Positions 3,333 to 27,941 of a stretch of DNA of 49,497 nt are shown piece by piece. Made by a program: the position numbers and the translations under genes. Under the pieces are notes generated by a model. That model was not told where the DNA came from, searched no databases, and was given only the letters and a program-made list of their open reading frames with translations. Each line of letters opens with the position of its first letter. The first letter of the stretch is position 1. The DNA is from a virus, in IMG/VR virus record IMGVR_UViG_3300020417_001503, positions 1 through 49,497 of that record; one strand, written 5' to 3'.

Positions 3333-4238
3333 ATGTTTGGAATTCAACCGGGTGTGTGTCGAGAAGCAATAGGAAGAACAGATTTATTATATACTAAGAA
3401 GGATACATTTGACAGTGATCTAATGTATTCCTGGTCTAGATTTCATTATGATAAGATTCGTCGTAACAAATTTGCTACTGTCAAACCATACTATGGAACA
3501 TGCCCATTTATGTGGGAACTTGGTGTAATTGCTGTTACAGAGGAGTTTGATCCTAAGGGTTCTTTATTCTATCTACCCCGCGATGATCAAGTTACAATTA
3601 GAGACGCTGAATATAGTAATGTGCAGGATGCTATTGATGCTGCACCTAAACCTATCACTTTCCTTGTACCTTTCAGGTCGTGTGATGTATGGAAAGACTG
3701 GACTAAACTCAGAATACCGGAAGGATCAAGGTTAGTATCACTAACAGATCCAGAGATGAGACAATATACTCTGGCACGATTGTTACATCAACATGAGCAC
3801 ATTTATATTCCATGGCCTGGAACAGATTTATATTACGCTGCTTTCTTAGGTAAAGAGATTCATCTGTACGATAAGATTATAAACTATAGAACCAAGAATG
3901 CTAATGAGATGGAACGCACTTATGAGCGTGTATTATTTCATCTCAAGTGGGGATATGATTTCCTCACAGATAAACAAAAGACATTCTTCCACTGGACAGA
4001 ACGATGGAATGATATTGACATCCATGATAGAGCATGGTTAGTCAATAACTTCTTAGGTTTAGATGCACTCAAACCTCCACATGAATTGCATAAGGATATG
4101 TTGGAGAAGGGATACTTACATCATTTGCAGATGTTCACACCAATCAAGAAATACTATGATGCATATGAGTGGATTGATCATCAGATGTTAGAGGCAACAC
4201 CTACATCGGAGGGTTATAAGAAGTTTAGTTTACTCTAG
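3333..4238 (+). CDS. Unrecognised protein, possibly surface-glycan related
   Basis: 302 residues from ATG 3333 (MFGIQPGVCREAIG). The frame is open back to an in-frame ATG at 3261 (325 residues), but those codons run through a near-perfect terminator, so I prefer 3333; neither start has a Shine-Dalgarno sequence. The sequence is rich in Tyr, Trp and His, with no signal peptide. IYIPWPGTDLYYAAFLGKEI near residues 180-200 recalls acceptor/donor loops of polysaccharide-synthesis proteins, but this is weak. The stop overlaps by 9 bp with the stop of the convergent SIS-HAD gene. Sugar-activation neighbours suggest a glycan role. Confidence 0.5.
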   Translation: MFGIQPGVCREAIGRTDLLYTKKDTFDSDLMYSWSRFHYDKIRRNKFATVKPYYGTCPFMWELGVIAVTEEFDPKGSLFYLPRDDQVTIRDAEYSNVQDAIDAAPKPITFLVPFRSCDVWKDWTKLRIPEGSRLVSLTDPEMRQYTLARLLHQHEHIYIPWPGTDLYYAAFLGKEIHLYDKIINYRTKNANEMERTYERVLFHLKWGYDFLTDKQKTFFHWTERWNDIDIHDRAWLVNNFLGLDALKPPHELHKDMLEKGYLHHLQMFTPIKKYYDAYEWIDHQMLEATPTSEGYKKFSLL

Positions 4239-5093
4239 TAAAGCAAAGAACTCACTATCATGTGATCCACGATCGTCAACATAAACTGATGCTCGTGGTT
4301 TACCAAAGAATAGTTTGTGATACTTTACTCCCCATTCTTTCAACTGTGCTTCAGTCCTGCTGCGACAAAGGTAGTCAGCATTACGTTGCTGTGCTTGTGG
4401 GTCATCAGGGTATCTCTGTGCACTAACGATAAATCCACGTGCAGTTTGTAGATATATCGTAGCACCGTTATCATACATTTTATTGATCTTATCAATGCGA
4501 TCCATTCGTGGTACTGCGTTCCATGGATCACCATCATGTGGTTCAGTCAGTGTGCCATCAATATCAACACAATATACATCACATCGTGAACTAATATCTT
4601 TTGTAGGTGCATGACGTGGTAGTGCTGGTAACTCAACACCACACTCTTCCATCATGTTATAGATGGACATCATTGCAAATACTTCAAATTCGTGATAGAA
4701 ATTAGATTCAACCACCAATGTAGGAAGATATTCGTGTTTCTCTGGTGCAATAATAAGCACATGAGTTCTGAATGGTGGTGATCTACGCCATTCTTTTTCT
4801 AGTGCTTCAACAGCATATACAGCAGGTGATTGTATCCTGCAAGTGATAAGAATGATGAGATCTGCTGACTTAGCAGCATAATCTAACCAGGGAATCTTCC
4901 AATCATAATCACCACCCAGTGCAGTCTGATTCACACTGTCTGGTGCAAAGCAGAACTTATTCATGTGACGGTAAATGTCACTTGCCATGTGTTGTGCAAT
5001 GGCAAGATTACCACCAGTGCCCAGCAATGCCACGTTGGTAGCACTGCTGAGCATATCTGCTGCAACTCTTAGTTCTTCAGGTTCAACAACCAT
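4230..5093 (-). CDS. SIS-domain sugar isomerase fused to HAD phosphatase
   Basis: 287 residues, two domains. Residues 1-150: a SIS fold with LLGTGGNLAIAQHMASDI (23-40), close to the phosphosugar-binding segment of GmhA-type sedoheptulose-7-phosphate isomerases. Residues 170-287: a HAD phosphatase with motif I DIDGTL (D177, D179), motif II around T217 (LQTARG), Lys in FGKP (about 265) and motif IV YVDDRG (D273, D274); the end resembles capsule-biosynthesis phosphatases of the EcbF/BcbF type. All HAD catalytic residues are present. The gene starts within the end of the cytidylyltransferase gene (25-bp overlap), so the two are co-translated. Inference: it makes and dephosphorylates an unusual sugar for nucleotide activation. 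Confidence 0.8.
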   Translation of the reverse strand: MVVEPEELRVAADMLSSATNVALLGTGGNLAIAQHMASDIYRHMNKFCFAPDSVNQTALGGDYDWKIPWLDYAAKSADLIILITCRIQSPAVYAVEALEKEWRRSPPFRTHVLIIAPEKHEYLPTLVVESNFYHEFEVFAMMSIYNMMEECGVELPALPRHAPTKDISSRCDVYCVDIDGTLTEPHDGDPWNAVPRMDRIDKINKMYDNGATIYLQTARGFIVSAQRYPDDPQAQQRNADYLCRSRTEAQLKEWGVKYHKLFFGKPRASVYVDDRGSHDSEFFALLE

Positions 5094-5782
5094 TCTACCT
5101 CTTGGATGTGCCAGGCACGGTCAACTGCTCTGATTTTACCACACTTTAGATCGTATGGTATTACATCATATTTACCAATAAATCCAATAGTATCAAGACC
5201 CTTCCAATACTTGACAAAGGTCATGTCACAATTAGGGAAATCAACAATAACACTTCGTCTATAAAAATATAATCCTAATTGCACCGTGATATTATCACAC
5301 ACCACATCAGGTGAGCGTTGCATATGAATAACCTTACCGTTATTCTCTATCATTTTGACAACATCTTCGTCTTCAATCTCTCCATCCTCTAATCTTCGTG
5401 AACTCTGCAATACATCAACATCGTTATCAATACCATAGGCAATCATTTCGTCTATCCACTCAGGTTGAGTGAGTGGTTCATCACCCTGTAGATTGAAGAT
5501 GTAATCGTATGGTTGATGTTCTGCTACCTCAGCAACACGATGTGTGCAAGTGTAGTGCTTACTTGTCAGCAAAGCATCATAACCTGCCTCCCAGCACAGA
5601 TCTACGATAGAATCGTCCTCAGTGGCGATTACAACGTTGTCAACATACTTTGACCTAGATGCAATTTCTGCCACTCTCAGGACCATCTGGGTGCCATTGA
5701 TGAGCGCCATGGGTTTGCCAGGGAATCTACCTGACGACATCCGTGCCGGAATGACACATAACGTGCTTTTTCCCTTATACAT
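5069..5782 (-). CDS. KdsB-like sugar cytidylyltransferase
   Basis: 237 residues, similar in length to KdsB (about 250). N-terminal nucleotide-binding motif IPARMSSGRFPGKPM (11-25), metal-binding FNLQGDEPL, and a C-terminal VDRAWHIQEVEWLL matching the VDTPEDL-type end of KDO cytidylyltransferases. KdsB joins CTP to KDO to give CMP-KDO for lipopolysaccharide; NeuA and SpsF relatives activate other acids or sugars. The usual SGTDR segment is CTHR here, so the substrate may differ. It is the first gene of a two-gene minus-strand operon with the SIS-HAD fusion. No kdsA-like synthase is visible in this window, so the pathway would need host or off-window enzymes. Confidence 0.82.
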   Translation of the reverse strand: MYKGKSTLCVIPARMSSGRFPGKPMALINGTQMVLRVAEIASRSKYVDNVVIATEDDSIVDLCWEAGYDALLTSKHYTCTHRVAEVAEHQPYDYIFNLQGDEPLTQPEWIDEMIAYGIDNDVDVLQSSRRLEDGEIEDEDVVKMIENNGKVIHMQRSPDVVCDNITVQLGLYFYRRSVIVDFPNCDMTFVKYWKGLDTIGFIGKYDVIPYDLKCGKIRAVDRAWHIQEVEWLLNLKN

Positions 5783-17001: not shown

Positions 17002-17169
17002 TCAAGGGTAGAAGATTTCTATGAGTTGGGCGTTTTGAGTGACTCTGAACTTCTTACCGGACTGTACGGAACGGATTTTTGCGGTATTGGAAGCAGATGT
17101 CACGTTATGGGACTCGCCATAGCGATGCCACTTGAAGAATTGATCCTGGTATTCAATGATATATTTCAT
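17002..17169 (-). CDS. Small protein (55 aa), unknown
   Basis: 55 residues (MKYIIEYQDQFFKWHRYGES). Short beta-rich basic protein: strand, loop, then a helix or strand with SASNTAKIRSVQSGKKFRV. Its ATG overlaps the stop of the zinc-ribbon-like gene (ATGA), and it is followed directly by the terminator, so it is the last gene of the minus-strand operon. The opposite-strand frame over it appears to be a shadow. Confidence 0.65.
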   Translation of the reverse strand: MKYIIEYQDQFFKWHRYGESHNVTSASNTAKIRSVQSGKKFRVTQNAQLIEIFYP

Positions 17170-17435
17170 AAGTCACCGAAGCGATCACGAAGATCTTCTT
17201 TTTCTTTTTTGAGTGTTGAGAGAGCACCATCTACGAAACCACGACGGTAATCCCAAGTATCTCCTCCGAGTTGACCACGGGAAGGGTTGATACATTTATC
17301 GGAGTCAGGGTCATCTTGTCTGATGTTATTGCAGACAAGACCAGCGAGGTCTATATCTTTACCAGGTTTGCCAGTACCTTGCCAATAGAGTTGACCCTCC
17401 ATCCAGGTAGCACCACATTTCTCACATTTCTTCAT
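17166..17435 (-). CDS. Zinc-ribbon-like small protein (89 aa)
   Basis: 89 residues beginning MKKCEKCGATW. Cys4 and Cys7 form a CxxC knuckle; Cys35 and Cys48 (LVCNNI, DKCINP) could complete a Cys4 zinc site. The C-terminal 35 residues form a Lys/Glu-rich helix. Such ribbons often bind nucleic acid or proteins. The type appears in T4-like cyanophages without known function. Overlaps the following gene by 4 bp. Confidence 0.65.
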   Translation of the reverse strand: MKKCEKCGATWMEGQLYWQGTGKPGKDIDLAGLVCNNIRQDDPDSDKCINPSRGQLGGDTWDYRRGFVDGALSTLKKEKEDLRDRFGDL

Positions 17436-17727: not shown

Positions 17728-18510
17728 TTATAGCATAGATGCTACATGTTGGTCAAGGAGGTTGGCGATAACTATAGAACCTTCTTGAGAGGGGTGGAGA
17801 GAGTGTGGGTTGACTACGTTATGGTCTAGGAGTTTTTGTATTCTTGAAGAGTCTACGAGCCAATTAGAGAAGTGCATTTGATCTCCATGACATGGTTCAC
17901 CGGAAACCTCTGCGGTCATTTGGGACATCAGGTCGGGCATCCCCTCATGTGGGAATACTATGGCGTTCTTATGGATGGTGTTTGTGGGGTTTAGAGTATC
18001 GAACCATTTATGGCGGATGCCCCTCAGGTCAAAGTACTTCTGCCAATGTTTGATATTTTCTGCAAGTTGGTAGTATTCATTCTTTTCATTGAAGTGTCTT
18101 TCAAAGTGGTTGATGACGTTGAACCTGGATCTTCTCTCCCACGGTTCTTGACGTTTAGTATGGCGATTGAAAATGAATGCTCTATACTTATCGATATTAT
18201 TGAAGAAGAGTTCGTCTCTATGGATAGATGTGATACCCCATAGGACGATAATGTCTTCTGGATTTTCTACTGTATTGAAGTATTCTGTTGCAAGACGGAA
18301 CTGTGTTTTATTAGCAGAACCACCTTTTGCGAGGTTATGTTGTTCTAAGTTATACTTCTTTGCTAAAAGTGTTCGCCAGGCATAGGGGGCATTATGGGGC
18401 GTTATGCCTCGATAACTCTGATAGGTGTCTTTATCATCTGGGTTCTTGCAGGAATATGCTGCACCAACACCTTTGACCCATGAGCAACCAATCGTGACTA
18501 ATGTTGTCAT
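17728..18510 (-). CDS. SGNH/GDSL-hydrolase-like paralogue 1
   Basis: 260 residues. Block I TIGCSWVKG (nucleophile Ser10), block III-like KGGSANKTQFR (Gly64, Asn67), a conserved VLWGITSIHRDELFF strand, and block V NPHSLHPSQEG with His239 in the catalytic place. The usual Asp three residues before the His is His236, so a full D-x-x-H is lacking. SGNH enzymes cut or move acyl groups on sugars. It starts within the stop of paralogue 2 (ATGA overlap). The cluster with sulfotransferases suggests glycan ester chemistry; the substrate is unknown. Confidence 0.68.
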   Translation of the reverse strand: MTTLVTIGCSWVKGVGAAYSCKNPDDKDTYQSYRGITPHNAPYAWRTLLAKKYNLEQHNLAKGGSANKTQFRLATEYFNTVENPEDIIVLWGITSIHRDELFFNNIDKYRAFIFNRHTKRQEPWERRSRFNVINHFERHFNEKNEYYQLAENIKHWQKYFDLRGIRHKWFDTLNPTNTIHKNAIVFPHEGMPDLMSQMTAEVSGEPCHGDQMHFSNWLVDSSRIQKLLDHNVVNPHSLHPSQEGSIVIANLLDQHVASML

Positions 18511-19223
18511 AAGATATCTTTCAGTGCTTTTTCAAATAGTATAGCAATTTCGTTATGACCATCCTGTGTTGGGAGGAGTGCATCATCAACTAGACCACCT
18601 AAGCGTAAATCACCAATACGGTCACAATCGACGTAACCAGTAGCGAAATGATGTCGATCTTGCTCATAAACTTTTCTAGATGCAATGGTTTGTGATACTA
18701 AGTCTTGCATTCCTTGATGGGGGAATACAACTTTATTAGCAGTGATGGTATTGGTTTCGTTATGGATATCATACCACAGATTACGGATACCAGACATGTC
18801 AAAATACTTTTGCCACAATCGGATATTGTCTCTAGTCCTTTCTTCTATGATATCAATATCAAAATGATCTTCATAGTGCCTGGTGATTGAATAATCATAG
18901 TTATTATGCCGGAACTTACGATCTGCTCTAGGATTCATTGTATGAGCAGAGAATCGCATTTGAGTGTAAGCATTCCTACCATTCATGTAGATCTCATCTG
19001 AGTATAGAGTATTGATACCCCATAGGACGATGACTTCTTTTGGATCGATGTTCTGATTGAAGTACTGGGTTGCCTTACGAAATTGATTCCAGTTTGACGC
19101 ACCCTTTTCTGATAAGTCGTTACACTTGAAATTATAATGCTCACCAAGAATTCTCATCCAATTCTTTTGTTTGAGTGGATAACGACCTCGTACCCAACTA
19201 TCTCCTAATGTAACTAGAATCAT
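18507..19223 (-). CDS. SGNH/GDSL-like paralogue 2
   Basis: 238 residues, the shortest of the four, missing the insert after block I. It alone has the canonical GDSW (Ser9). KGASNWNQFR gives Gly41 and Asn44. Block V reads VDDALLPTQDG: Asp214 is in the acid position, but Leu217 replaces the catalytic His. It matches paralogue 1 through VIVLWGINTLYSDEIYMN and KYFDMSGIRNLWYD. It may be a binding or regulatory partner rather than an enzyme. Overlaps both neighbours by 4 bp. Confidence 0.66.
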   Translation of the reverse strand: MILVTLGDSWVRGRYPLKQKNWMRILGEHYNFKCNDLSEKGASNWNQFRKATQYFNQNIDPKEVIVLWGINTLYSDEIYMNGRNAYTQMRFSAHTMNPRADRKFRHNNYDYSITRHYEDHFDIDIIEERTRDNIRLWQKYFDMSGIRNLWYDIHNETNTITANKVVFPHQGMQDLVSQTIASRKVYEQDRHHFATGYVDCDRIGDLRLGGLVDDALLPTQDGHNEIAILFEKALKDIL

Positions 19224-20011
19224 AATGCAATTTGCCGATTGATGAGTTCTGCAATCAGATAATGACCCGCTTTGGTCGGATGATAAGAATATGGATTGAC
19301 AAGACCTAATCGGACAGCAGTATCGATCCTTTTAGAATCTCTAGTGTATTGTGAGATATGATAGGAATCATTTTGTATAGAGATTCCCCTAGCATTTAGC
19401 ATTTGATAGAGTACATCCCTTTGAGGTTCCTTATCGAATAACAACCGAGGAATCTCTGCTCCATAGTCATGATGATTGAATGTATCGATCCAATAGTTCT
19501 CAATACCACGACCTTCAAAGTATCGATTCCAATGGAGCATTTCAAATCTCAGTCGTCTCACCTGCTCTTCGTGGTTATAATGATCTTTGACGTATTGCTT
19601 TGAATCAAAGTTGCACTTTCTCATCATGTGCTCATGAGCGGTGCCTCCGTTGCCGTACAGCACGTTACTATACCCTGCGTTGCCCTCTTTCCCCCAACGA
19701 TTCGTACAATAGACCTCATGGCGTGCTGTGGAGGTGATAAACCACAACACAATTACTTTATCTTCTGCTAGTTCATTCGTAGCAAAATATTTTCTGGCAT
19801 GACGAAACTGTCTCTGGTTTGACGAACCCTGGACAGAATAATTGACGTTCTTATATTGGTAGTGCTCAGCAAGGATTGTACGGAAAGCATTCTGACGGCA
19901 TAGTTCCTTATCCGCAGAGATGTTCCTGTACTCCATCTTGGTCATGCCGTTCTCAAAGGCAGAACCCGTCCCGAAGGTCCATGAGCAACCAAAGGTAACT
20001 AATTTTTTCAT
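19220..20011 (-). CDS. SGNH/GDSL-like paralogue 3
   Basis: 263 residues. TFGCSWTFGTGSA (Ser10), QGSSNQRQFR (Gly/Asn), VLWFITSTARHEVYC, RYFEGRGIENYWID and block V NPYSYHPTKAGH with His244. The acid before the His is Tyr241. Block I is followed by GMTKMEYRNIS, an insert shared with paralogue 4 but not 2. So Ser and His are kept, Asp is not in its usual place. The start overlaps nothing upstream (17-nt gap to paralogue 4) and the stop overlaps paralogue 2. Confidence 0.66.
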   Translation of the reverse strand: MKKLVTFGCSWTFGTGSAFENGMTKMEYRNISADKELCRQNAFRTILAEHYQYKNVNYSVQGSSNQRQFRHARKYFATNELAEDKVIVLWFITSTARHEVYCTNRWGKEGNAGYSNVLYGNGGTAHEHMMRKCNFDSKQYVKDHYNHEEQVRRLRFEMLHWNRYFEGRGIENYWIDTFNHHDYGAEIPRLLFDKEPQRDVLYQMLNARGISIQNDSYHISQYTRDSKRIDTAVRLGLVNPYSYHPTKAGHYLIAELINRQIAL

Positions 20012-20028
20012 AACAAAGTCAGATCAAT

Positions 20029-20847
20029 TTAGAGTTTTGCTTTGATTGCAGCGTCCATCCAATCTGCGATCTTTGCTTGAGATGCTGCGGTAGGCAGAAT
20101 AGCGTGAGGGTTGACTGCCTTCTTCTCTACCAGATACTTTGCCCGCTTACAATCTTGATGCATGGACTGACCAGAGTGATCATTATCTTCTTCAGGAGTC
20201 CAACCTGCATCTACAGCAAGCATGGTCATCAGAGAACGATCGTCCTTTTCAGTGAACAGATAGTTGTCGGGTACCGTTGTATACTTGATCTGGTTGAGTT
20301 CATCATACCAGAAGACCTTGTATCCAAGGTTATTCAGATAACGATTCCAGTGAGCAATGTTATATTGCAGTTGCTCGGTTTCGTTCTGTTCGTTATAGTG
20401 ATTCTTGACATACTGGAACATGTCAAAATCTTTGGTCTTGAAGATATTAGCGTTGTTACCATATCCGTTGGCATACAGCACACCAACATATCCTTTGCCA
20501 GAGGCATTGAATCCTACTGAGTCATCGTTCATAAAGAGTTCATGACGGGCAAGATGAGGAATACCGACCAAAACAATGGTCTCAGCAGCATCAGTACCAT
20601 CAAGAACTTCCGTCATCTTACGGAAGTTTCTCATGTTGCTACTACCAACACGAGCATGTGTAGTCAGTTCCCACCCATTCTTCTCAGCAAGAAGGTTCTT
20701 CCAGGTTAGGGGGTTATTTCGATCCTTGTCGTAAGTAGTTTCGCCTGCAATGCAAATTGCGGACTTATACTCTGCCAAGGTCATACCATCAGTGTAACTA
20801 GCCCCTGTTCCTTGGGTCCAAGAAGATCCAAACGTAAGGAGTTTCAT
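20029..20847 (-). CDS. SGNH/GDSL-like paralogue 4
   Basis: 272 residues, the longest. TFGSSWTQGTGAS (Ser9), VGSSNMRNFR, VLVGIPHLARHELFMN, RYLNNLGYKVFWYD. Block V is NPHAILPTAAS: Leu251 replaces the catalytic His, as in paralogue 2. Residues 20-30 carry the GMTLAEYKSA insert. The ATG directly follows the stop of the 40-residue ORF. Good coverage of the family frame, but the missing His argues against ordinary hydrolysis. Confidence 0.66.
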   Translation of the reverse strand: MKLLTFGSSWTQGTGASYTDGMTLAEYKSAICIAGETTYDKDRNNPLTWKNLLAEKNGWELTTHARVGSSNMRNFRKMTEVLDGTDAAETIVLVGIPHLARHELFMNDDSVGFNASGKGYVGVLYANGYGNNANIFKTKDFDMFQYVKNHYNEQNETEQLQYNIAHWNRYLNNLGYKVFWYDELNQIKYTTVPDNYLFTEKDDRSLMTMLAVDAGWTPEEDNDHSGQSMHQDCKRAKYLVEKKAVNPHAILPTAASQAKIADWMDAAIKAKL

Positions 20848-20970
20848 CTATGCTTCGTGCGATGGTATTGTGAGCATGATTTTCCATGCCCTCTGGTATT
20901 TATCTGATACGAGCTTCCTAAACATCAGCAATGACATCAAAGTCGTTTGGTACGCGATTATTTCTTCCAT
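20848..20970 (-). CDS. Small protein (40 aa), unknown
   Basis: 40 residues (MEEIIAYQTTLMSLLMFRKL). Its ATG lies inside the last codons of the sulfotransferase in another frame, and its stop abuts the next ATG, so it fills the gap exactly. Amphipathic helix, then a basic stretch. The tight packing is the main support. Confidence 0.5.
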   Translation of the reverse strand: MEEIIAYQTTLMSLLMFRKLVSDKYQRAWKIMLTIPSHEA

Positions 20971-21938
20971 GAACTTGGTATATACCCGAAGGTATTTTCA
21001 AAATCGGTATAATATCTAGACATAATGTGAACTGCCCTCCGATATTCCTCGTCAGTCAACTCTTCAATGTCACTTGACCACTGATCTTTGAGGAATTCAT
21101 ACTGTGGAGCGTTCTTTCCCATGAAGGGAACGTAGGCATTTTCATGAATTTTCTCAACTTTATATGACAAGAAGTCAGAAATTTGTTGTAATTGGTTTTT
21201 TTCTTGTTTTTTATCCCAAAAATCTTCCATTATAACAGTATAAACGTTCTCTTTACCAAAAACATCGACGTATTTGGCATAACCTTCCCGAAAATTAGAA
21301 TTATTTGAGTACCAACCTTGAGAAAGATGGTAAAAAAACGTCTTTGTCTGCTTTTTTCGCCGAATTAGCGACTTGACTTTGAAATCGTGGTGATCTTTTG
21401 ACCCAAAATCAAGAGTTTTGGTGAAAAGACTGCCAATTTCCGAATAAAAACGCCTTACTGGGTCGCGAAATTCCATCATGACCTTGATTTCAAAGTGATC
21501 AAGCAGTTTTGGAGCGATCATCTTCAAAAATCCGTAATCTAAACCCCAATTTCCGTTGCAAAAGTCACAGACAGCAGCGTAATCGTGTTTTATATTGTCC
21601 CAGTGCGTCAAATAGTACTCAATGTAGTCATCGATTTTGATTTTTTCCCGAAAAAAGATGTCCATCGGGGTATCCTTGGCAATTTCGTTGCGAGATGATA
21701 GAATTTTACCCCAAGGATGGTCATGTGGGCGCTTGCCCTTTGATCCCTTCAATGCAGGAGAGTTTGCTTTCTTGAAAACCTCATTGAAAGAGTCATCATT
21801 CTTCTGTAGTTTCACCAGAAACCAATTTTCTTTATAATGTCCCTGATGAGCGTACTTATTATCCAACGCAAGGGTGTAAAACATGGGCGTGGTTGCCGAC
21901 CACCCAGTGCCAGGATTTATTAGTAGCGTTGGTTTCAT
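20958..21938 (-). CDS. Sulfotransferase-like protein 1
   Basis: 326 residues. LINPGTGWSATTPMF (6-20) matches the 5'-phosphosulfate loop of PAPS-dependent sulfotransferases; MEFRDPVRRFYSE (155-167) is the 3'-phosphate motif with Arg158 and Ser166. The enzyme would move sulfate from PAPS to a hydroxyl, probably on a sugar. Closely related to the gene at 22128 (shared WDNIK-DY-AV-DF and an NAYVP-AP motif), which is read in the opposite direction from a shared 34-nt gap. It heads the minus-strand operon of SGNH-like genes. Acceptor unknown. Confidence 0.75.
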   Translation of the reverse strand: MKPTLLINPGTGWSATTPMFYTLALDNKYAHQGHYKENWFLVKLQKNDDSFNEVFKKANSPALKGSKGKRPHDHPWGKILSSRNEIAKDTPMDIFFREKIKIDDYIEYYLTHWDNIKHDYAAVCDFCNGNWGLDYGFLKMIAPKLLDHFEIKVMMEFRDPVRRFYSEIGSLFTKTLDFGSKDHHDFKVKSLIRRKKQTKTFFYHLSQGWYSNNSNFREGYAKYVDVFGKENVYTVIMEDFWDKKQEKNQLQQISDFLSYKVEKIHENAYVPFMGKNAPQYEFLKDQWSSDIEELTDEEYRRAVHIMSRYYTDFENTFGYIPSSWKK

Positions 21939-21972
21939 AAACCTATATATTGTACAAAATTGGAGGTCACTT

Positions 21973-22131
21973 ATGCCTTATGATGTCTATCTAGACAAAA
22001 AAATTATTTTTACAGAGTTGACTAAAGAGCAAGCAGAAGATATTCAGATCACAATGCAAAGAATGATCATGGCGGGTATAAAAACCGACTATACCGTCGA
22101 ACAAATTAGAGTTGAATTGTCCAAATCATGA
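21973..22131 (+). CDS. Small protein (52 aa), unknown
   Basis: 52 residues from ATG 21973, preceded by TGGAGG. MPYDVYLDKKIIFTELTKEQ, helix, then DYTVEQIRVELSKS: looks like a small beta-alpha domain. The stop overlaps the sulfotransferase ATG (ATGA), so translation is coupled. Confidence 0.6.
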   Translation: MPYDVYLDKKIIFTELTKEQAEDIQITMQRMIMAGIKTDYTVEQIRVELSKS

Positions 22132-23021
22132 AACCCACCTTATTTTTGAATGTTGGCACCGGATGGTCTGGTACAACTCCATTATATTACACTTTAGGTT
22201 GGTATAACAAGTATTGCCATGCTGGGCATCGGAAAGAGAAGGGATATTTGTGGTTGATGAACCTGGCGGCAGAAAAAAAGACCTTTGAGCGTGTCAGATT
22301 TTACAAAGAGTTTTTTGGACCGTCAAAACAATCAACGTCAACGAGAAAACCAAAGATATTTACTCATGAGTCTCCTTATGTTGCAGGAAAGTGGACTGAG
22401 GAGGAAATAAAGTATTTTTGGTCTCCTCCGTTTACTCTACAAAAGTATATTGAGTACTACGAACGGCATTGGGACAATATCAAAGACGATTATAAGGCAG
22501 TAGCAGATTTTAGCAACCCAAACGGGTATTGTGATGAAAATTTCATCATGTCGATTGCTCCTGACCTAAAAAAACACTTTGATGTAAAAATTAGCATCGT
22601 TTTCCGAGATCCAATTCGCAGATTGTGGTCTGTGCGTCAAAAACAAAATCCTAATGACCCAGTTCGCCATTTTATGAAATCTGGCGTCGATTTTGGGTAT
22701 GCAGAAATGTTTTTGAAGTGGGCAATGGCGTTTGGGTCGGAAAATTGTCATATTACGATTATGGAGGATTTCTGGAATGGAGAAACCAAACCATTGTCGG
22801 ATTTTATCGGATATGAAATCAAAGAAGTCCACAAAAACGCATATGTGCCGGATTTGGGTCCAGCAGCACCCCATATACAGTATTTGAACGATCAGTGGGA
22901 ATCTGACGTGATGCATATGCCAAAAGAAACTATGGAGTATGCAAAACAAATGTGTAAACCAATATATGACAATTTTAGAATGTATTTCGGTTATCTCCCC
23001 GAAAGATGGGAAATAAAGTAA
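22128..23021 (+). CDS. Sulfotransferase-like protein 2
   Basis: 297 residues. LNVGTGWSGTTPLYYTLGW (7-25) as PAPS loop and VFRDPIRRLWSVRQ (158-171) as the 3'-phosphate site (Arg160, Ser168). Paralogue of the protein at 20958, about 30 residues shorter through the middle. NAYVPDLGPAAP and LNDQWESDV near the end match its sister. Likely PAPS-dependent O-sulfation of a glycan. The pair may act at two positions or on two acceptors. Confidence 0.75.
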   Translation: MKPTLFLNVGTGWSGTTPLYYTLGWYNKYCHAGHRKEKGYLWLMNLAAEKKTFERVRFYKEFFGPSKQSTSTRKPKIFTHESPYVAGKWTEEEIKYFWSPPFTLQKYIEYYERHWDNIKDDYKAVADFSNPNGYCDENFIMSIAPDLKKHFDVKISIVFRDPIRRLWSVRQKQNPNDPVRHFMKSGVDFGYAEMFLKWAMAFGSENCHITIMEDFWNGETKPLSDFIGYEIKEVHKNAYVPDLGPAAPHIQYLNDQWESDVMHMPKETMEYAKQMCKPIYDNFRMYFGYLPERWEIK

Positions 23022-23048
23022 TATACATAGAACGCACTACTCATTCAT

Positions 23049-23168
23049 ATGTTCAATCCGTTCTCTTGGTTGATACTACAGTGGCGGTTACGTCAGATTC
23101 GTCGAATGGACCCGTTCATTTACGAAGATGACGATGATATGGATGAGGAACCAAATCCTGAAGAATGA
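23049..23168 (+). CDS. Small membrane-like/acidic-tail protein (39 aa)
   Basis: 39 residues: MFNPFSWLILQWRLRQIRRM, then an acidic tail (EDDDDMDEEP). A short hydrophobic/basic amphipathic N-terminus could touch a membrane. The stop overlaps the carbamoyltransferase ATG, so the two may be coupled. Confidence 0.5.
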   Translation: MFNPFSWLILQWRLRQIRRMDPFIYEDDDDMDEEPNPEE

Positions 23169-24550
23169 TTGGTTTTTCCGAAGGTTTTCATGACTCAGCA
23201 GTTGCAGTAGTTCATGAAGACAGAATTATCTTTGCCACACACGGCGAAAGGTACTCAAAGAAGAAACATGACAAATATCTTTGTGATGAAGCTGCATTTA
23301 TGGCGGAAGCACTGAATACCTATGATGGTGTCTATGCTTTCTATGAAAAACCTTTTCCTAAACGGATGAGGCAGTTTTTTGCTGGACAGAAGCATTGGAA
23401 CAAACCTAGGGAACTAAGATTTCGTCCTACGGTAGATTTTACCCATCATTTGTCTCATGCTGCCGCAGCATTCCAAACTTCGGTGTTTGAGCAGGCAGCA
23501 TGTGTTGTTGTAGACAGTATTGGCGAATTTGACTGTAGTTCAGTCTGGGTTGCCAATATGATTGACGGAAGAGCGAAATATACGAAAGTCTGGTCTAAGA
23601 AGTATCCAAAGTCGATTGGTCTTTGGTATTCTGCTCTAACGAAGTATGCTGGTCTTCGTCCTTTGGATGAAGAGTATATTTTTATGGGTATGGCGGCATT
23701 TGGTGAAAATAAGCACGAAAACCAACTCAGACAACTCCTAACAGAAAATAATCACCGGGGAATCAATATTGACTTCTCCAACTCAACTTTTGACTTGGCA
23801 AAGAGTGCTCAAGTTGTTTTGGAAGAAGAACTGACCAAAATCTTCAAGATAGCACTTGAGTACAGCAATAACGTTTGTTATGGTGGTGGGGTTGCTCTAA
23901 ACTGCGTTGCTAACACCAAACTGCGGGAAATGTGCAATCTATGGATTATGCCTAACCCAGGAGATGCTGGAGCGGCGTTAGGTGCTGCATTGTTGGTATC
24001 TGGCAAGAAAGTGCAGTGGACGCCTTACTGTGGACATAATATTGAACGTAAGGTTGATCCTAAGGATGTTGTTCAGTGTTTGCTTGAAAATGGCGTTGTG
24101 GGTGTTGCAAATGGCAGAGCAGAGTATGGTCCCCGTGCTTTAGGCAACAGATCACTTCTAGCGGATCCTAGGAAAGCCGAGAACAAGGAAAAAGTAAATC
24201 GCATCAAAAAACGCCAGGAATTCCGGCCTTTTGCTCCTGCAATCCTAGAAGAGCATTGTCGGGATTATTTTGACATGAATCATTCGCATTCTAGGTATAT
24301 GTCATATGTCTATAATTGTTTGCGTCCTGAGGAGATTCCTGCTGCTGTACACGTCGATAATAGTGCACGAGTACAAACTGTACCTGAGACCTCTAGCAGC
24401 ATCCTAAGACCTATCCTAGAGGAGTGGTATCGTGTCACAGGTTGTCCTGTACTACTCAACACTTCATTGAACATAAGGGGCAAACCCATGGTCAACGATT
24501 GGGGTGATGCACTGGATTTTCAGGCAAAGTATAACGTAAAAGTGTTCTAA
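23165..24550 (+). CDS. NodU/CmcH-family carbamoyltransferase
   Basis: 461 residues (family usually 500-600). HHLSH (94-98) is the metal-binding motif of the Kae1-like domain; GGGVALNCVAN (241-251), NGRAEYGPRALGNRS (317-331) and FRPFAPA (354-360) are the family signatures, ending with LLNTSLNIRGKP. These enzymes attach carbamoyl from carbamoyl phosphate (through carbamoyl-AMP) to hydroxyls of Nod factors, antibiotics or sugars. All motifs are intact. It follows a sulfotransferase and precedes a glycosyltransferase, so the acceptor is probably a sugar. Slightly short, but no deletion of a signature is seen. Confidence 0.88.
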   Translation: MIGFSEGFHDSAVAVVHEDRIIFATHGERYSKKKHDKYLCDEAAFMAEALNTYDGVYAFYEKPFPKRMRQFFAGQKHWNKPRELRFRPTVDFTHHLSHAAAAFQTSVFEQAACVVVDSIGEFDCSSVWVANMIDGRAKYTKVWSKKYPKSIGLWYSALTKYAGLRPLDEEYIFMGMAAFGENKHENQLRQLLTENNHRGINIDFSNSTFDLAKSAQVVLEEELTKIFKIALEYSNNVCYGGGVALNCVANTKLREMCNLWIMPNPGDAGAALGAALLVSGKKVQWTPYCGHNIERKVDPKDVVQCLLENGVVGVANGRAEYGPRALGNRSLLADPRKAENKEKVNRIKKRQEFRPFAPAILEEHCRDYFDMNHSHSRYMSYVYNCLRPEEIPAAVHVDNSARVQTVPETSSSILRPILEEWYRVTGCPVLLNTSLNIRGKPMVNDWGDALDFQAKYNVKVF

Positions 24551-24579
24551 TTGTGCTAACCTATATAAGGTGGTATAAT
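24551..24579 (+). promoter_or_regulatory. Sigma-70-like promoter for glycosyltransferase
   Basis: TTGTGC (-35), 17-nt spacer, TATAAT (-10), ending 23 nt before ATG 24603. It starts right after the carbamoyltransferase stop. Confidence 0.7.
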
Positions 24580-24602
24580 TGAATTGACAAACCTTTCATT
24601 TC

Positions 24603-25370
24603 ATGGCAAAAGGATTCAAGGTGGTTACGACTCCACCCGAAAGCGAGGACGCTGCAAAAAAGTCTGATGAGTTTAGTATTGAAGCTGCCCGCGAACTGGT
24701 AAAGGGAAAAACGTTTGTTTTCTGTCTTCCCGGTCGTACGGTTTCATATATCTACCTGAAGAATTTTGTGCAACTCGCTTTTGAGATTGTGCAACGTGGA
24801 GGTTCTTTGCAGATCTCCCAAGACTATTCGTCCATGGTCAATTTTGCCCGATGTAAATGTCTGGGCGCTAATGTTCTCCAAGGTCCAGATCAGAAACCTT
24901 GGCAGGGCAACCTGAAGTATGATTATCAGTTGTGGATTGATAGTGATATTGTTTTCGGTCTAGAGCAGTTCTACCGTCTCCTTTGGATGGATAAAGATAT
25001 TGCTGGTGGTTGGTATGTGACTGAAGACGGACAGACTACCTCTGTTGCTCACTGGTTGGAAGAAGAAGATTTCAAAAACAACGGTGGTGTGATGAACCAT
25101 GAGATGCTGGATGGCATCCAGAAGCGTCGTAAACCGTTCACTGTGGACTATACCGGTTTTGGTTGGTTGCTGATCAAGCACGGAGTCTTCGAGCACGAGA
25201 AGATGAAGTATCCTTGGTTTGCTCCACAGATGCAGGTCTTTGAATCTGGTGAAGTGCAAGACATGTGTGGCGAAGATGTGTCATTCTGTCTTGAAGCACA
25301 GAAGGCAGGTTTTGAAATTTGGTGTGATCCTAAGTGTCGAGTTGGACACGAAAAAACTCGAATTATCTGA
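24603..25370 (+). CDS. GT2-like glycosyltransferase (GT-A fold)
   Basis: 255 residues. The metal/nucleotide-sugar motif is WIDSDIVF (D113-x-D115); CGEDVSFCLEAQKAGFEIWC near 227-246 is the usual C-terminal GED...acceptor/base region, followed by DPKCRVGHE. Single domain without membrane segment; it acts in the cytoplasm. Donor and acceptor are not readable. Its own promoter lies right after the carbamoyltransferase gene. This would build the sugar that the neighbouring sulfo- and carbamoyltransferases modify, or glycosylate a virion protein or base. Confidence 0.8.
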   Translation: MAKGFKVVTTPPESEDAAKKSDEFSIEAARELVKGKTFVFCLPGRTVSYIYLKNFVQLAFEIVQRGGSLQISQDYSSMVNFARCKCLGANVLQGPDQKPWQGNLKYDYQLWIDSDIVFGLEQFYRLLWMDKDIAGGWYVTEDGQTTSVAHWLEEEDFKNNGGVMNHEMLDGIQKRRKPFTVDYTGFGWLLIKHGVFEHEKMKYPWFAPQMQVFESGEVQDMCGEDVSFCLEAQKAGFEIWCDPKCRVGHEKTRII

Positions 25371-25404: not shown

Positions 25405-25569
25405 ATGGATCTATATGATATTTGGGTTTGTGGGAAGAAAGTTTACGCTTCCATCACAGAAGCGGAAATGGAAGAATATTCTCAAGATCTTGCTGACGAA
25501 TACTATGCAAATGGATATCCACACCCAGATGATGTAGAGATTTGTTACTTAGGACATGAGGGGGTCTGA
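25405..25569 (+). CDS. Small acidic protein (54 aa), unknown
   Basis: 54 residues (MDLYDIWVCGKKVYASITEA). Tyr/Glu-rich helix in the middle (EMEEYSQDLADEYYANGYPH). A TATAAT-like box lies at 25379. The stop lies in the terminator stem. No family recognised. Confidence 0.55.
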   Translation: MDLYDIWVCGKKVYASITEAEMEEYSQDLADEYYANGYPHPDDVEICYLGHEGV

Positions 25570-25585
25570 AAGGACCTCCTTTTTT
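25560..25585 (+). terminator. Rho-independent terminator before gp25
   Basis: GGGGGTC, loop TGAAAG, GACCTCC (one G-U pair), followed by six T. It separates the glycan-type genes from the late baseplate operon. Confidence 0.85.
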
Positions 25586-25591
25586 GTGCCT

Positions 25592-25606
25592 CTAAATAGA
25601 TAAATA
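25592..25606 (+). promoter_or_regulatory. Tandem late promoter boxes before gp25
   Basis: CTAAATA (25592-25598) is followed at once by GATAAATA (25599-25606), about 21 nt before GTG 25627. Both resemble T4 late boxes; together they suggest a strong start for the baseplate operon. Confidence 0.7.
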
Positions 25607-25626: not shown

Positions 25627-26031
25627 GTGCCGATTCAGAGAACGTCGGAGGGTTTCAAGGATATTTCCTTATCCATGAAAACTCATCCAGTTACTAAAGA
25701 CATAATTCCTCTGAAGAACGAAGATGCTATCAAGCGTTCCGTTCAAAACTTGGTCCGTATCCGATTAGGCGAAGTATTTTTCAATACACTTCTGGGAACA
25801 AGAATTACCGCTTCGTTATTTGAGTTAGCGAACGATGATTACATTGATCCCATTCGAGGAGAGATTGAGACTACAATAACCAACTTTGAACCAAGGGTTG
25901 ACCTGACAGACATCCAGGTTATTAGCAGACCCGATGATAATGCACTTGCGGTGACTATTAGTTACGACATTGTGGGACTGACTAGACCTGCTCAGTCGGT
26001 ATCATTCGTACTTGAACCTACTAGGCTATAA
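25627..26031 (+). CDS. 25: Baseplate wedge protein gp25
   Basis: 134 residues (T4 gp25 is 132), starting at GTG 25627 with TTAGGG upstream. SVQNLVRIRLGEVFFNTLLG (38-57) and LFELANDDYIDPIRGEIETT are the core of the gp25/lysozyme-like wedge family; the stretch after it ends in strand IQVISRPDDNALAVTI. It links baseplate wedges to the sheath. First gene of the operon; the stop overlaps the gp6 start (TAATG). Confidence 0.92.
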   Translation: MPIQRTSEGFKDISLSMKTHPVTKDIIPLKNEDAIKRSVQNLVRIRLGEVFFNTLLGTRITASLFELANDDYIDPIRGEIETTITNFEPRVDLTDIQVISRPDDNALAVTISYDIVGLTRPAQSVSFVLEPTRL

Positions 26032-27941
26032 TGGCACTCACCCAATTTACCAATCTGAATTTTGAGGACATCAAGAGGTCCATCAAAGACTATCTGAGGG
26101 AGAACAGTAACTTCACAGATATGGACTTTGAGGGGTCTAACCTCAGCATCCTAATCAATATTTTAGCGTATAATGCTTATAGCACCGCCTATAACACCAA
26201 CATGGCGGTCAATGAGACTTTCATTGACTCTGCAACGCTGAGGGAGAACGTTGTATCCCTGGCACGAAACATTGGATATGTTCCTCGTTCAGCAAGAGCA
26301 GCGCGTGCTCTGGTTGCCATTGACCTTTCTAATCTAGCATCTGATACTGAGACTGTAAGTATCCAACCTGGCATTGTTGCCAATGGTTCTACTAATGATA
26401 CCAGTTTCTTGTTCTCCATTCCTGAGGAGATCACTTTCCCAGCAGACAGTGGTGAAGCTGGAGCAAACATTGAGATTTATCAAGGACAATATATCAAGAA
26501 TACTTTTACCGTAGATCAGTCACAACCCAATCAAAGGTTTGTGATCCCCAACAACAATGTTGACACCTCTACGATCAAAGTCAAGATCAAAAATAGTGCT
26601 TCTGACAATACTAGCGTTGATTATAATCTAGTTGACACTATTGTTGGTGTCACCTCTACGTCCAACATTTATTTGCTCCAAGAAACTTCTGACGAGAAGT
26701 ATGAGGTCTTGTTTGGTGATGATATCTTTGGTAAAAAGTTGTCATCCGGTAATGTCATCGAAATTGGTTACATCAAGACCAATGGTAAGGTGGGTAATGG
26801 TGTCAAGCAGTTCAATTTCTCAGGCACCCTAAAAGATCAGGATGGTGCTACTGAGTCTGGGTTTAGTGCTGCTCTAGTTGCCCTAGAAGCGTCTCAGAAC
26901 GGCGATAGCATTGAACCGTTGGAGAGTGTCAAGTATTACGCTCCCCGCCTCTATGCGTCCCAATACAGGGCAGTGACGGCAAATGACTATGAAGCAATCC
27001 TCCCGGCAATCTTCCCTAACATTGAGTCTGTTAGTGCCTATGGTGGTGAGGAGTTAGATCCTCCCCAGTTTGGTCGGGTTTACATTGCTGCCAAACCCAA
27101 GAATGGTTCTTTCCTGTCAAACTTGACTAAGAAGAATCTTTTGAATGACTTGAAGAGTTATTCTATTGCTGGAATTGTTCCTACGTTCATTGATCTCAAG
27201 TTCCTGTATGTTGAGATTGACTCATATGTTTACTACAACTCCAACTTTGTTGGAGATATTGACAACTTGAAGACTAATGTTATCAAAGCTCTTTCTACTT
27301 TTGGGTCTGGCAAGGAACTCAACAAATTCGGCGGCAGGTTCAAGTACAGTAAGATTCTATCTACGATTGACAATGTTGATACTTCTATCACTTCAAATAT
27401 CACCCTAGTGAGAATGAGAAGGGATTTGATTGCCAAAGTCAATCAGTTTGCCCAGTATGAGATTTGTTTCCTCAATACCATGTATGCACCTGATGAGCAG
27501 TATAACATCCGGTCTACCGGATTTACTGCGTCTGGTGTTGTTGGAACTTGTTACTTCAGTGACCAAAAGGTGAGTGAAGATAAGGGTACGATCTTTATGT
27601 TCCAGATTCTTCAGGATGATAGCGTCAAAGTTATCACCAAGAACCTTGGTCGAATTGATTATGCTAAAGGTGAGATTGTTCTTGATACCATCAACATCAC
27701 ATCCACTCTTGTGGGCGACAATATTATTGAGGTTGAGGCAATTCCTCAATCGAACGATGTTCTTGCAAAGAACGAACTGTACTTGCAGTTTGATGTCTCT
27801 AAGAGCAACTTCTACATGAGGAAGGATAGTATTGCAACCGGTGCCAATACTTCTGGATCACAATTCGTCCCACAGTCCAGTTACTTTGCTGACAAGAAGG
27901 TCCGTGGAACTGTTATAACTAGCACTGGTGCATCTAACTAG
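26031..27941 (+). CDS. 6: Baseplate wedge protein gp6
   Basis: 636 residues (T4 gp6 is 660). N-terminal NFEDIKRSIKDYLRENSNFT and GSNLSILINILAYNAYSTAY (40-59), ATLRENVVSLARNIGYVPRS and the rest match the baseplate J-like fold of gp6, which forms the inner ring of the wedge. It follows gp25 directly, as in T4. No break or missing section is seen. Confidence 0.93.
   Translation: MALTQFTNLNFEDIKRSIKDYLRENSNFTDMDFEGSNLSILINILAYNAYSTAYNTNMAVNETFIDSATLRENVVSLARNIGYVPRSARAARALVAIDLSNLASDTETVSIQPGIVANGSTNDTSFLFSIPEEITFPADSGEAGANIEIYQGQYIKNTFTVDQSQPNQRFVIPNNNVDTSTIKVKIKNSASDNTSVDYNLVDTIVGVTSTSNIYLLQETSDEKYEVLFGDDIFGKKLSSGNVIEIGYIKTNGKVGNGVKQFNFSGTLKDQDGATESGFSAALVALEASQNGDSIEPLESVKYYAPRLYASQYRAVTANDYEAILPAIFPNIESVSAYGGEELDPPQFGRVYIAAKPKNGSFLSNLTKKNLLNDLKSYSIAGIVPTFIDLKFLYVEIDSYVYYNSNFVGDIDNLKTNVIKALSTFGSGKELNKFGGRFKYSKILSTIDNVDTSITSNITLVRMRRDLIAKVNQFAQYEICFLNTMYAPDEQYNIRSTGFTASGVVGTCYFSDQKVSEDKGTIFMFQILQDDSVKVITKNLGRIDYAKGEIVLDTINITSTLVGDNIIEVEAIPQSNDVLAKNELYLQFDVSKSNFYMRKDSIATGANTSGSQFVPQSSYFADKKVRGTVITSTGASN

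What the first reader, a model, noticed from the sequence alone, without database searches (positions are those of the whole stretch)
20958..25370. A phage-encoded glycan-decoration cluster: two sulfotransferases, carbamoyltransferase, glycosyltransferase and four SGNH-like genes
Within about 8 kb (17728-25370) the window holds every step needed to build and decorate a sugar: glycosyl transfer (24603), sulfation (20958, 22128), carbamoylation (23165) and possible ester chemistry (17728-20847). The cytidylyltransferase/SIS-HAD pair at 4230-5782 could supply an activated sugar. The cluster adjoins baseplate genes and ends with its own terminators. I infer a system that decorates a virion glycoprotein, host surface glycan or DNA; sulfation plus carbamoylation in one phage locus is unusual as far as I know.
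Basis: partly seen in the sequence, partly recalled or inferred. Interest (0 to 1): 0.85.

Follow-up and report, generated by a model that had tools for sequence, protein, structure and literature searches.

The report
Phage island for decorating sugars
Uncultured ocean viruses of photosynthetic bacteria carry, in front of their tail-base genes, a fixed pair of sugar-modifying enzymes beside swappable sets of enzymes that probably add sulfate or acyl groups, and some relatives have eight sulfate-adding enzymes side by side.

Summary
The window is a T4-like cyanophage fragment. 20958-21938 (-) and 22128-23021 (+) encode two diverged paralogs with a PAPS-sulfotransferase fold. 23165-24550 is a NodU/TobZ-type carbamoyltransferase, 24603-25370 a conserved cyanophage glycosyltransferase (weakest name), 17728-20847 four SGNH/GDSL proteins. 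Linkage is conserved: of 48 relatives of this carbamoyltransferase with at least 3 kb upstream, 43 have sulfotransferases (up to 8) and 48 have SGNH-type genes; 73 of 73 with enough downstream sequence have the glycosyltransferase and gp25. Contigs with few or no sulfotransferases carry more SGNH genes.

A terminator-like hairpin and late promoter motif separate the cluster from gp25, and sulfotransferase/carbamoyltransferase genes lack that motif. I favour tailoring of a host-surface or small intracellular glycan over virion decoration. Phage carbamoyltransferases and single phage sulfotransferases were known; I found no report of such arrays in the papers searched. The acceptor is unknown.

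The parts
17728..18510 (-). SGNH/GDSL protein 1 (GCSW nucleophile block, LHP block V)
   Evidence: alignment A2; family hits among relatives
18507..19223 (-). SGNH/GDSL-like protein 2; GDSW kept, block-V His replaced (LLP), likely not a standard hydrolase
   Evidence: alignment A2
19220..20011 (-). SGNH/GDSL protein 3 (GCSW, YHP...GH)
   Evidence: AF2 model pLDDT 90.5; Z 14.6 to carbohydrate esterase 7TOH/7TOG, about 14 to TesA
20029..20847 (-). SGNH/GDSL-like protein 4; block-V His replaced (ILP)
   Evidence: alignment A2
20897..20903 (-). ATAAATA late-promoter-like motif 49 nt upstream of the SGNH run
   Evidence: 16 of 43 first-in-run SGNH genes in relatives have the motif
20958..21938 (-). 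Sulfotransferase-family protein ST1 (not modelled)
   Evidence: 35% identical to ST2; member of the profiles that hit 3RNL
21973..22131 (+). 52-aa ORF overlapping the ST2 start, matched in 30 of 31 loci; no family
22128..23021 (+). Sulfotransferase-fold protein ST2
   Evidence: AF2 model; Foldseek and VIA-align
23165..24550 (+). NodU/TobZ-type O-carbamoyltransferase (CT)
24603..25370 (+). Cyanophage-conserved probable glycosyltransferase (GT; phrog_1574; invariant DSD and ED)
25558..25581 (+). Terminator-like hairpin after the ST2-CT-GT strand
25592..25606 (+). Tandem CTAAATA/ATAAATA late-promoter motifs in front of gp25
   Evidence: motif in 48 of 48 gp25 upstreams
25627..26031 (+). gp25 baseplate wedge subunit (neighbour, anchor)
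   Evidence: matches the annotated baseplate gene in L037 and L274; same place in P-SSM2 and S-SSM7
26031..27941 (+). gp6 baseplate wedge subunit (neighbour)
5069..5782 (-). KdsB-like CMP-sugar cytidylyltransferase; possible sugar supply
   Evidence: a sulfotransferase ORF overlaps its relative in AG-345-D19
4230..5093 (-). HAD-type phosphatase domain (C-terminal half) with an unassigned, possibly SIS-like N-terminal half
   Evidence: split into two ORFs in AG-345-D19

Best explanation
This is a glycan-tailoring island of an uncultured cyanophage lineage. Fixed core (shown by linkage): one carbamoyltransferase, one glycosyltransferase, and at least one SGNH-type protein. Variable part (shown): 0-8 diverged sulfotransferase-family genes and/or 1-7 SGNH genes just upstream. 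Inferred mechanism: the enzymes are soluble and work in the cytosol of the infected cyanobacterium on one acceptor, using host PAPS (sulfate), carbamoyl phosphate plus ATP (carbamoyl), an acyl donor or an ester bond (SGNH), and a nucleotide sugar (glycosyltransferase). The acceptor is most likely a host-made or lipid-linked surface glycan, or a small sugar compound. The likely use is to change the infected cell's surface or chemistry against rival phages or grazers. The promoter pattern suggests that sulfotransferases and carbamoyltransferase are expressed outside the late programme. Differing sets of tailoring enzymes would give each phage its own decoration pattern. The acceptor and the benefit are not shown.
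For: Linkage: of 48 carbamoyltransferase relatives with at least 3 kb upstream, 43 have ST and 48 have a gene labelled SGNH by profile; after grouping carbamoyltransferases at 90% identity, 15 of 17 eligible groups have ST. GT and gp25 are in 73 of 73 with at least 2.5 kb downstream. The same island is in AG-345-D19, amplified from one sorted particle: ST, two SGNH and CT on one 8-kb contig, GT-gp25-gp6 on another; this argues against a metagenome chimera. Interchange: of the contigs without ST, the three that I listed with five or six SGNH genes upstream of CT are L147, L176 and L181; ST and SGNH counts oppose each other (30 loci, rho -0.75). Diversified, not freshly duplicated: best within-contig ST identity has a median of 34%, best other-contig identity 89%. 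Timing: late motif within 100 nt of the start in 48/48 gp25, 5/5 w48127, 6/7 w33, but 1/46 CT and 5/174 ST. Among genes that are first in their run: gp25 40/40, ST 0/84, CT 1/29. In the window no such motif stands on the + strand between 16900 and 25591. Cytosolic: highest 19-residue hydropathy 1.37. Precedent: cyanophage LPS and carbamoyltransferase clusters are proposed to decorate capsular sugars or make a metabolite (PMC7824862, section 22 read).
Against: The acceptor is inferred only. The ST 5'-phosphosulfate loop has W, F, Y or H in 58 of 58 aligned members where Lys/Arg is expected (the expectation is recalled), so catalysis is not assured. Two of four window SGNH proteins lack the block-V His. 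15 of 47 GT upstreams, 16 of 43 first SGNH genes and the window's SGNH run do carry a late motif, so part of the set may be late. A missing motif is weak evidence for genes inside a run: gp6 has it in only 1 of 47 and the next gene in 0 of 39 although both follow gp25. Second ST sites lie in the tail-fibre region, which fits virion decoration. The ST-SGNH anticorrelation partly follows from counting in a fixed 8 kb and from shared ancestry; near-identical contigs raise the other-contig identity. No APS kinase in 8 of 8 contigs, all possibly fragments, so PAPS must come from the host.
Confidence: 0.45

Rival explanations
1. Virion decoration: the enzymes glycosylate, sulfate and carbamoylate a baseplate or tail-fibre protein, tuning adsorption or shielding the virion.
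For: The anchor position beside gp25 is conserved in 73 of 73. Further sulfotransferases lie in the tail-fibre region of relatives: in G001 after a tail-fibre-like ORF, in L111 and L114 before one. The SGNH run in the window has a late motif.
Against: A terminator-like hairpin plus late motif splits the cluster from gp25. ST and CT genes lack the late motif, also when first in their run (0 of 84 and 1 of 29). In P-SSM2, S-SSM7 and S-SCSM2R the glycosyltransferase sits at the end of a tract of small unknown genes, not inside the structural module.
Confidence: 0.25
2. Metabolite synthesis (the small-compound branch of the best explanation, taken alone): the island makes a small sulfated, carbamoylated sugar compound that acts on the host or on competitors, as proposed for cyanophage carbamoyltransferase/halogenase clusters.
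For: Carbamoyltransferase relatives of known structure are antibiotic-pathway enzymes (TobZ, GdmN, a novobiocin enzyme). Neighbours in relatives include a radical SAM enzyme, an HpaI-type aldolase, an epimerase and a methyltransferase. Iyer et al. propose this for other cyanophages.
Against: No core biosynthetic enzyme is constant beside the island; the extra enzymes are in a minority of loci (radical SAM 11, aldolase 8).
Confidence: 0.2
3. DNA or nucleotide hypermodification by glycosyl and sulfo groups.
For: PMC10829341 (passage) cites Iyer 2013 (not held) for glycosyl- and sulfotransferase systems acting on nucleotides in phages.
Against: PMC2984593 (passage) reports no evidence of modified nucleotides or glycosylated DNA in cyanomyoviruses. 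No base-modifying family was hit convincingly by the cluster proteins.
Confidence: 0.06
4. The sulfotransferase-fold proteins are no longer sulfotransferases (not exclusive of the above): the catalytic Lys/Arg is lost, and they bind PAP or a glycan or use another donor.
For: Aromatic residue or His at the loop position in 58 of 58; most members have no Pfam sulfotransferase hit.
Against: The 3'-phosphate motif residues R160 and S168 are each kept in 56 of 58, E213 in 58, K36 in 53 and E37 in 51, which is more than a mere scaffold needs.
Confidence: 0.15

Closest known systems
Cyanophage LPS clusters (P-SSM2 and others) and 'second' carbamoyltransferase clusters (S-SSM6a; Iyer 2021, PMC7824862)
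   Same: T4-like cyanophage, glycosyltransferase or carbamoyltransferase, sugar enzymes, clustered and variable
   Different: LPS clusters are reported near hli03 or phoH (PMC3037559 passage); the second kind features 2OG oxygenases and a halogenase; 'sulfotransferase' occurs 0 times in the main text of PMC7824862; no sulfotransferase or SGNH array before gp25 is described in the section read
Heparan-sulfate 3-O/N-sulfotransferases and 3RNL
   Same: Predicted fold over the whole chain (Z 15.5-13.6), RDPxxRxxS 3'-phosphate motif, Glu about 24 residues after the loop (role recalled)
   Different: 10-16% identity; aromatic instead of Lys/Arg in the 5' loop; phage-borne, in arrays
NodU/NolO, TobZ, GdmN carbamoyltransferases
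   Same: Both domains, HHxSHA and GPRALGNRS motifs
   Different: 461 aa, shorter than TobZ (576); acceptor unknown; 27-38% identical to the phage copies in 59 of the 60 records listed
Nod-factor decoration genes (NodH/NoeE sulfation, NodU/NolO carbamoylation, NodL acetylation; recalled)
   Same: Same set of chemistries applied to one sugar backbone
   Different: No chitin-oligomer synthesis recognised here; analogy only, not tested
Prophage O-antigen conversion modules (gtr, oac; recalled)
   Same: Phage genes that alter host surface sugar
   Different: Membrane enzymes in temperate phages; here soluble enzymes in a presumably lytic phage

Membership tests
PAPS-dependent sulfotransferase | Sulfotransferase fold over the full chain | tested here: met
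   ST2 model Z 15.5 to 3RNL (220 aligned, 3.7 A); the 50 entries shown are sulfotransferases; 11 of 11 Foldseek hits with E<=0.001 are sulfotransferases. ST1 not modelled
PAPS-dependent sulfotransferase | 3'-phosphate-binding Arg...Ser (RxPxxRxxS; roles recalled) | tested here: met
   R160 in 56 of 58, S168 in 56 of 58
PAPS-dependent sulfotransferase | Lys/Arg in the 5'-phosphosulfate loop (recalled as K/R-S-G-T-T) | tested here: not met
   W35, F14, Y6, H3 of 58; position inferred from the loop pattern and the helix start in the model, not from a residue-level structural alignment
PAPS-dependent sulfotransferase | Sulfate transfer from PAPS | not testable with these tools
   -
NodU/TobZ O-carbamoyltransferase | Carbam_trans_N and _C domains above Pfam cut-off | tested here: met
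   115.5 and 176.6 bits against cut-offs 24 and 27
NodU/TobZ O-carbamoyltransferase | Metal-site His pair and Asp, GPRALGNRS motif | tested here: met
   H94, H95, H98, D267 and G322-S330 invariant in 17 of 17; catalytic roles recalled
SGNH/GDSL hydrolase | SGNH fold | tested here: met
   only SGNH3 modelled: Z 14.6, 174 aligned, 3.0 A
SGNH/GDSL hydrolase | Block I Ser, block II Gly, block III Asn, block V His | tested here: inconclusive
   Ser 29, Gly 28, Asn 32, His 25 of 32; window SGNH1 and 3 keep Ser and His, SGNH2 and 4 lack His; the block-V DxxH Asp (recalled) is not seen
Glycosyltransferase (GT-A) | DxD and fold | tested here: inconclusive
   D113-S114-D115 and E224-D225 invariant in 12 of 12; PHROG GT 1.3e-5; no PDB hit; not modelled
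Cyanophage LPS/glycan cluster | Several sugar-nucleotide and glycosyltransferase genes together | tested here: not met
   One GT and no sugar-nucleotide enzyme recognised within 17728-25370; the KdsB-like gene is more than 11 kb away
Anti-phage defence system | Match to PADLOC models | tested here: not met
   8 of 9 proteins no hit; ST1 one weak DndD hit 3e-4 over 72 residues, taken as chance

The most novel reading that the evidence does not exclude
The island is a viral 'sulfation code': a phage-only sulfotransferase family with a non-canonical active-site loop, expanded into arrays of up to eight old, diverged members that trade places with SGNH acyl enzymes beside an invariant carbamoyl-/glycosyl-transferase core, so that each phage lineage writes a different sulfate/acyl pattern on the same carbamoylated glycan, much as heparan-sulfate enzymes do in animals.
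Probability: 0.3. Interest if true: 0.88.

Novelty: new variant of a known kind. Interest (0 to 1): 0.62.

Why it matters
[quoted passage not shown] A fixed core next to swappable arrays turns that into a testable question: one acceptor, many decoration patterns. If confirmed, it would show ocean viruses rewriting sulfated sugars of cyanobacteria or of themselves. It would also add a sulfotransferase family with an unusual catalytic loop, for which one pattern-limited scan of 84,980 species genomes found no cellular relative.

Tried and rejected

The CMP-sugar pair as part of the island: kept only as a possible supply. 0 of 19 KdsB loci have ST within the fetched flank of up to 6 kb (some flanks are cut by contig ends); of 14 further KdsB contigs 2 have any ST (all possibly fragments); 5 of 9 ST contigs tested have KdsB; one case of direct adjacency, AG-345-D19.

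Phage PAPS supply: APS kinase 0 of 8 contigs. Defence-system reading: nothing convincing. Pfam PF13469 in five named phages (P-SSM2, S-B05, S-SCSM2R, S-SSM7, C48C1): 0 of 5, although S-SCSM2R has a 147-aa protein annotated sulfotransferase. PF13469 in 7 long contigs: 2 of 7 weak matches under the cut-off. The 32 kb of S-T4 around its carbamoyltransferase shows no annotated sulfotransferase. SGNH and ST profiles are unrelated. The listing returned a saxitoxin paper because that pathway also uses these two enzyme kinds (recalled); nothing else points that way and it was not followed. Late-motif counts over the whole window are not above chance (6 found, 5.3 expected; 7 found, 7.5 expected; 0 of TTAAATA, 7.5 expected); only the position in relatives carries weight. 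Promoter and terminator scans are at chance level overall.

Rows dropped: one search kept the best 80 of 119 relatives (75 distinct loci), another the best 80 of 144, another the best 80 of 427 (its 57 new loci were labelled but not counted in any result). In one search, 32 of 80 CT loci had under 3 kb upstream and 7 under 2.5 kb downstream and were set aside. The 5 without ST by the cut-off are L147, L166, L176, L177 and L181; L166 has two adjacent ORFs with ST matches, probably a broken copy. The 'SGNH' label in relatives rests on profile A2 or on a second profile built from one ORF cluster, E<=1e-5; of three such proteins scanned with Pfam, two hit DUF6071 (best 6e-7) and one hit nothing.

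Full report
NAMES. ST1, ST2: sulfotransferase-family proteins; CT: carbamoyltransferase; GT: glycosyltransferase; w33, w2016, w17166, w48127 and so on: window genes starting at those positions.

WHAT THE WINDOW IS. G000 is a 49,497-base virus record. gp6 and other baseplate proteins match PHROG baseplate families, and the gene before gp25 is the conserved phrog_1574 protein found in 103 phage records, 95 of them named Synechococcus phage, Prochlorococcus phage or cyanophage. psbA was not sought in the window itself. Of 16 related contigs tested in two calls, two carry photosystem reaction-centre genes: G001, 192 kb, with two copies (1 of 8), and G010, 122 kb (1 of 8). So the lineage infects cyanobacteria, by inference.

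THE PROTEINS. CT: certain at family level. ST: profile and structure agree, while single sequences are too far from the family models (of 23 members 2 hit Sulfotransfer_3; of 58 members 3 hit Sulfotransfer_1 and 1 Sulfotransfer_3). The 3'-phosphate motif is kept (R160 56/58, S168 56/58), but the loop position where I recall Lys or Arg is W, F, Y or H in 58 of 58. SGNH: fold clear for the one modelled; the nucleophile Ser is kept in 29 of 32 and the His in 25 of 32. In the window SGNH2 and SGNH4 lack the His. The GT name rests on PHROG similarity, on annotation in S-SCSM2R and Sf-FS3 and on an invariant DSD.

LINKAGE. Close relatives of ST2: 31 loci. CT follows in 30 of 31 (in one, L026, as two ORFs), GT in 29, ST1 in 29, SGNH genes in 25, the 52-aa ORF in 30; the missing ones lie at contig ends as far as the coordinates show. 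Reaching further with a profile gives 75 loci, and the arrays appear: L087 and L093 show eight ORFs matching the sulfotransferase profile, L099 eight and L101 nine, the first of each of the last two being cut by the contig end. Starting from CT instead: 80 loci; of 48 with at least 3 kb upstream 43 have ST, count 0-8, median 2; 73 of 73 with at least 2.5 kb downstream have GT and gp25; SGNH-type genes 48 of 48; 17 groups at 90% CT identity, 15 with ST. These contigs are related and the best matches were kept, so the counts describe this lineage, not all phages.

SWAPPING. L147, L176, L177 and L181 lack ST; the three of these that I listed (L147, L176, L181) have five or six SGNH genes in the same slot. 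L166 has a probably broken ST. Over 30 loci with at least 6 kb upstream, ST and SGNH numbers within 8 kb oppose each other (rho -0.75). A fixed 8-kb frame forces some of this, and the contigs are not independent. STs within one contig are old relatives (best match median 34%, 2 of 134 at 60% or more), while the best match elsewhere has median 89%, partly because some contigs are nearly identical. At 60% identity 72 groups were found among 212 STs of at least 260 aa.

OUTSIDE THE LINEAGE. In 50,697 phage records the ST queries hit only three records, all of Marine virus AG-345-D19, and SGNH3 hits none at E<=0.001. AG-345 is an extracellular-particle sort plate (PMC6122165 passages) from the Pacific. 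Its contigs repeat the island (ST, SGNH, SGNH, CT) and the GT-gp25-gp6 order, and it has a further ST overlapping KdsB-like and HAD-like genes. Other cyanophages have more distant carbamoyltransferases (134 records; 59 of 60 listed at 27-38% identity) and the GT without the rest beside it (P-SSM2, S-B05, S-SCSM2R, S-SSM7, S-SRM01). A scan of 84,980 species genomes found no cellular relative of ST (28 pattern matches, none confirmed); it is limited by its peptide patterns. Other phage sulfotransferases exist: S-T4 and uncultured marine phages in BFVD, S-SRM01 and two OM43-phage genomes (PMC10580990 passage), and viral-metagenome reports (PMC10829341, PMC8290583, PMC12285232 passages). PMC13079714, a further one, was seen only in the listing.

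TIMING. The cyanophage late promoter NATAAATA is reported in PMC2984593 (passage). Counting [ACT]TAAATA within 100 nt upstream of distinct copies: gp25 48/48, w17166 9/9, w48127 5/5, w33 6/7, w2016 2/2; CT 1/46, ST 5/174, KdsB 0/2; GT 15/47, first SGNH genes 16/43, inner SGNH genes 1/55; shuffled background 8%. Genes inside a late run also lack it (gp6 1/47, the next gene 0/39), so I recounted genes that are first in their run: gp25 40/40, ST 0/84, CT 1/29, GT 2/7. A terminator-like hairpin stands between GT and gp25. So ST and CT look early/middle and gp25 late. The SGNH run of the window may be late.

MECHANISM. Shown: gene content, predicted fold of ST2 and SGNH3, CT family, linkage, promoter pattern. 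Inferred: soluble cytosolic action (hydropathy only), host PAPS (no APS kinase in 8 contigs), one shared acceptor. I commit to tailoring of a host-surface or lipid-linked glycan or small sugar compound (0.45), with virion decoration next (0.25).

LITERATURE. Searches for sulfotransferase with cyanophage, with phage and carbamoyltransferase, with tail fiber and glycosyltransferase, 'phage-encoded sulfotransferase', with auxiliary metabolic gene and sulfation and with DNA modification listed no paper whose title or shown abstract describes such an array; the library holds only open-licence papers, and I opened only some of the listed ones. Iyer 2021 (section 22 read) is the nearest: cyanophage carbamoyltransferase clusters that decorate capsular sugars or make a metabolite. 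In PMC3037559 (passages) carbamoyltransferase is listed among sporadic cyanophage genes and LPS clusters are noted; sulfotransferase occurs 0 times.

VERDICT. New variant of a known kind.

Noticed in passing
window 21973-22131 (+): A 52-aa ORF overlapping the ST2 start is matched in 30 of 31 close loci and hits no Pfam, NCBIfam or PADLOC family.
   Followed up: partly
window 17166-17435 (-): An 89-aa protein with paired cysteines has the late motif upstream in 9 of 9 distinct copies and no Pfam or NCBIfam family.
   Followed up: partly
L117:4052-5332, L031:10536-11789 and nine other loci: A radical SAM protein (NCBIfam N_Twi_rSAM, 6e-68 for the L117 copy) lies between CT and GT or close by in 11 loci.
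   Followed up: partly
L087:538-1437 and 7 other loci: HpcH/HpaI-type aldolase (HpaI 6e-25 for the L087 copy) near the arrays in 8 loci; such aldolases act on 2-keto-3-deoxy acids, which could fit a Kdo-like sugar.
   Followed up: no
L166:2490-3274 (-): Two adjacent ORFs both match the sulfotransferase profile, probably a broken gene.
   Followed up: no
L071, L075, L111, L112, L114, L119: A second sulfotransferase site lies in the tail-fibre region downstream of w48465, with pairs or triplets of ST genes.
   Followed up: partly
L271 (S-SCSM2R 201921-222613): A cultured cyanophage has KdsB, KdsA, an amidinotransferase, 2OG-Fe(II) oxygenases and a short annotated sulfotransferase in one region near psbA/psbD.
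   Followed up: no
window, whole: TTAAATA occurs 0 times on either strand where shuffles expect 7.5.
   Followed up: no
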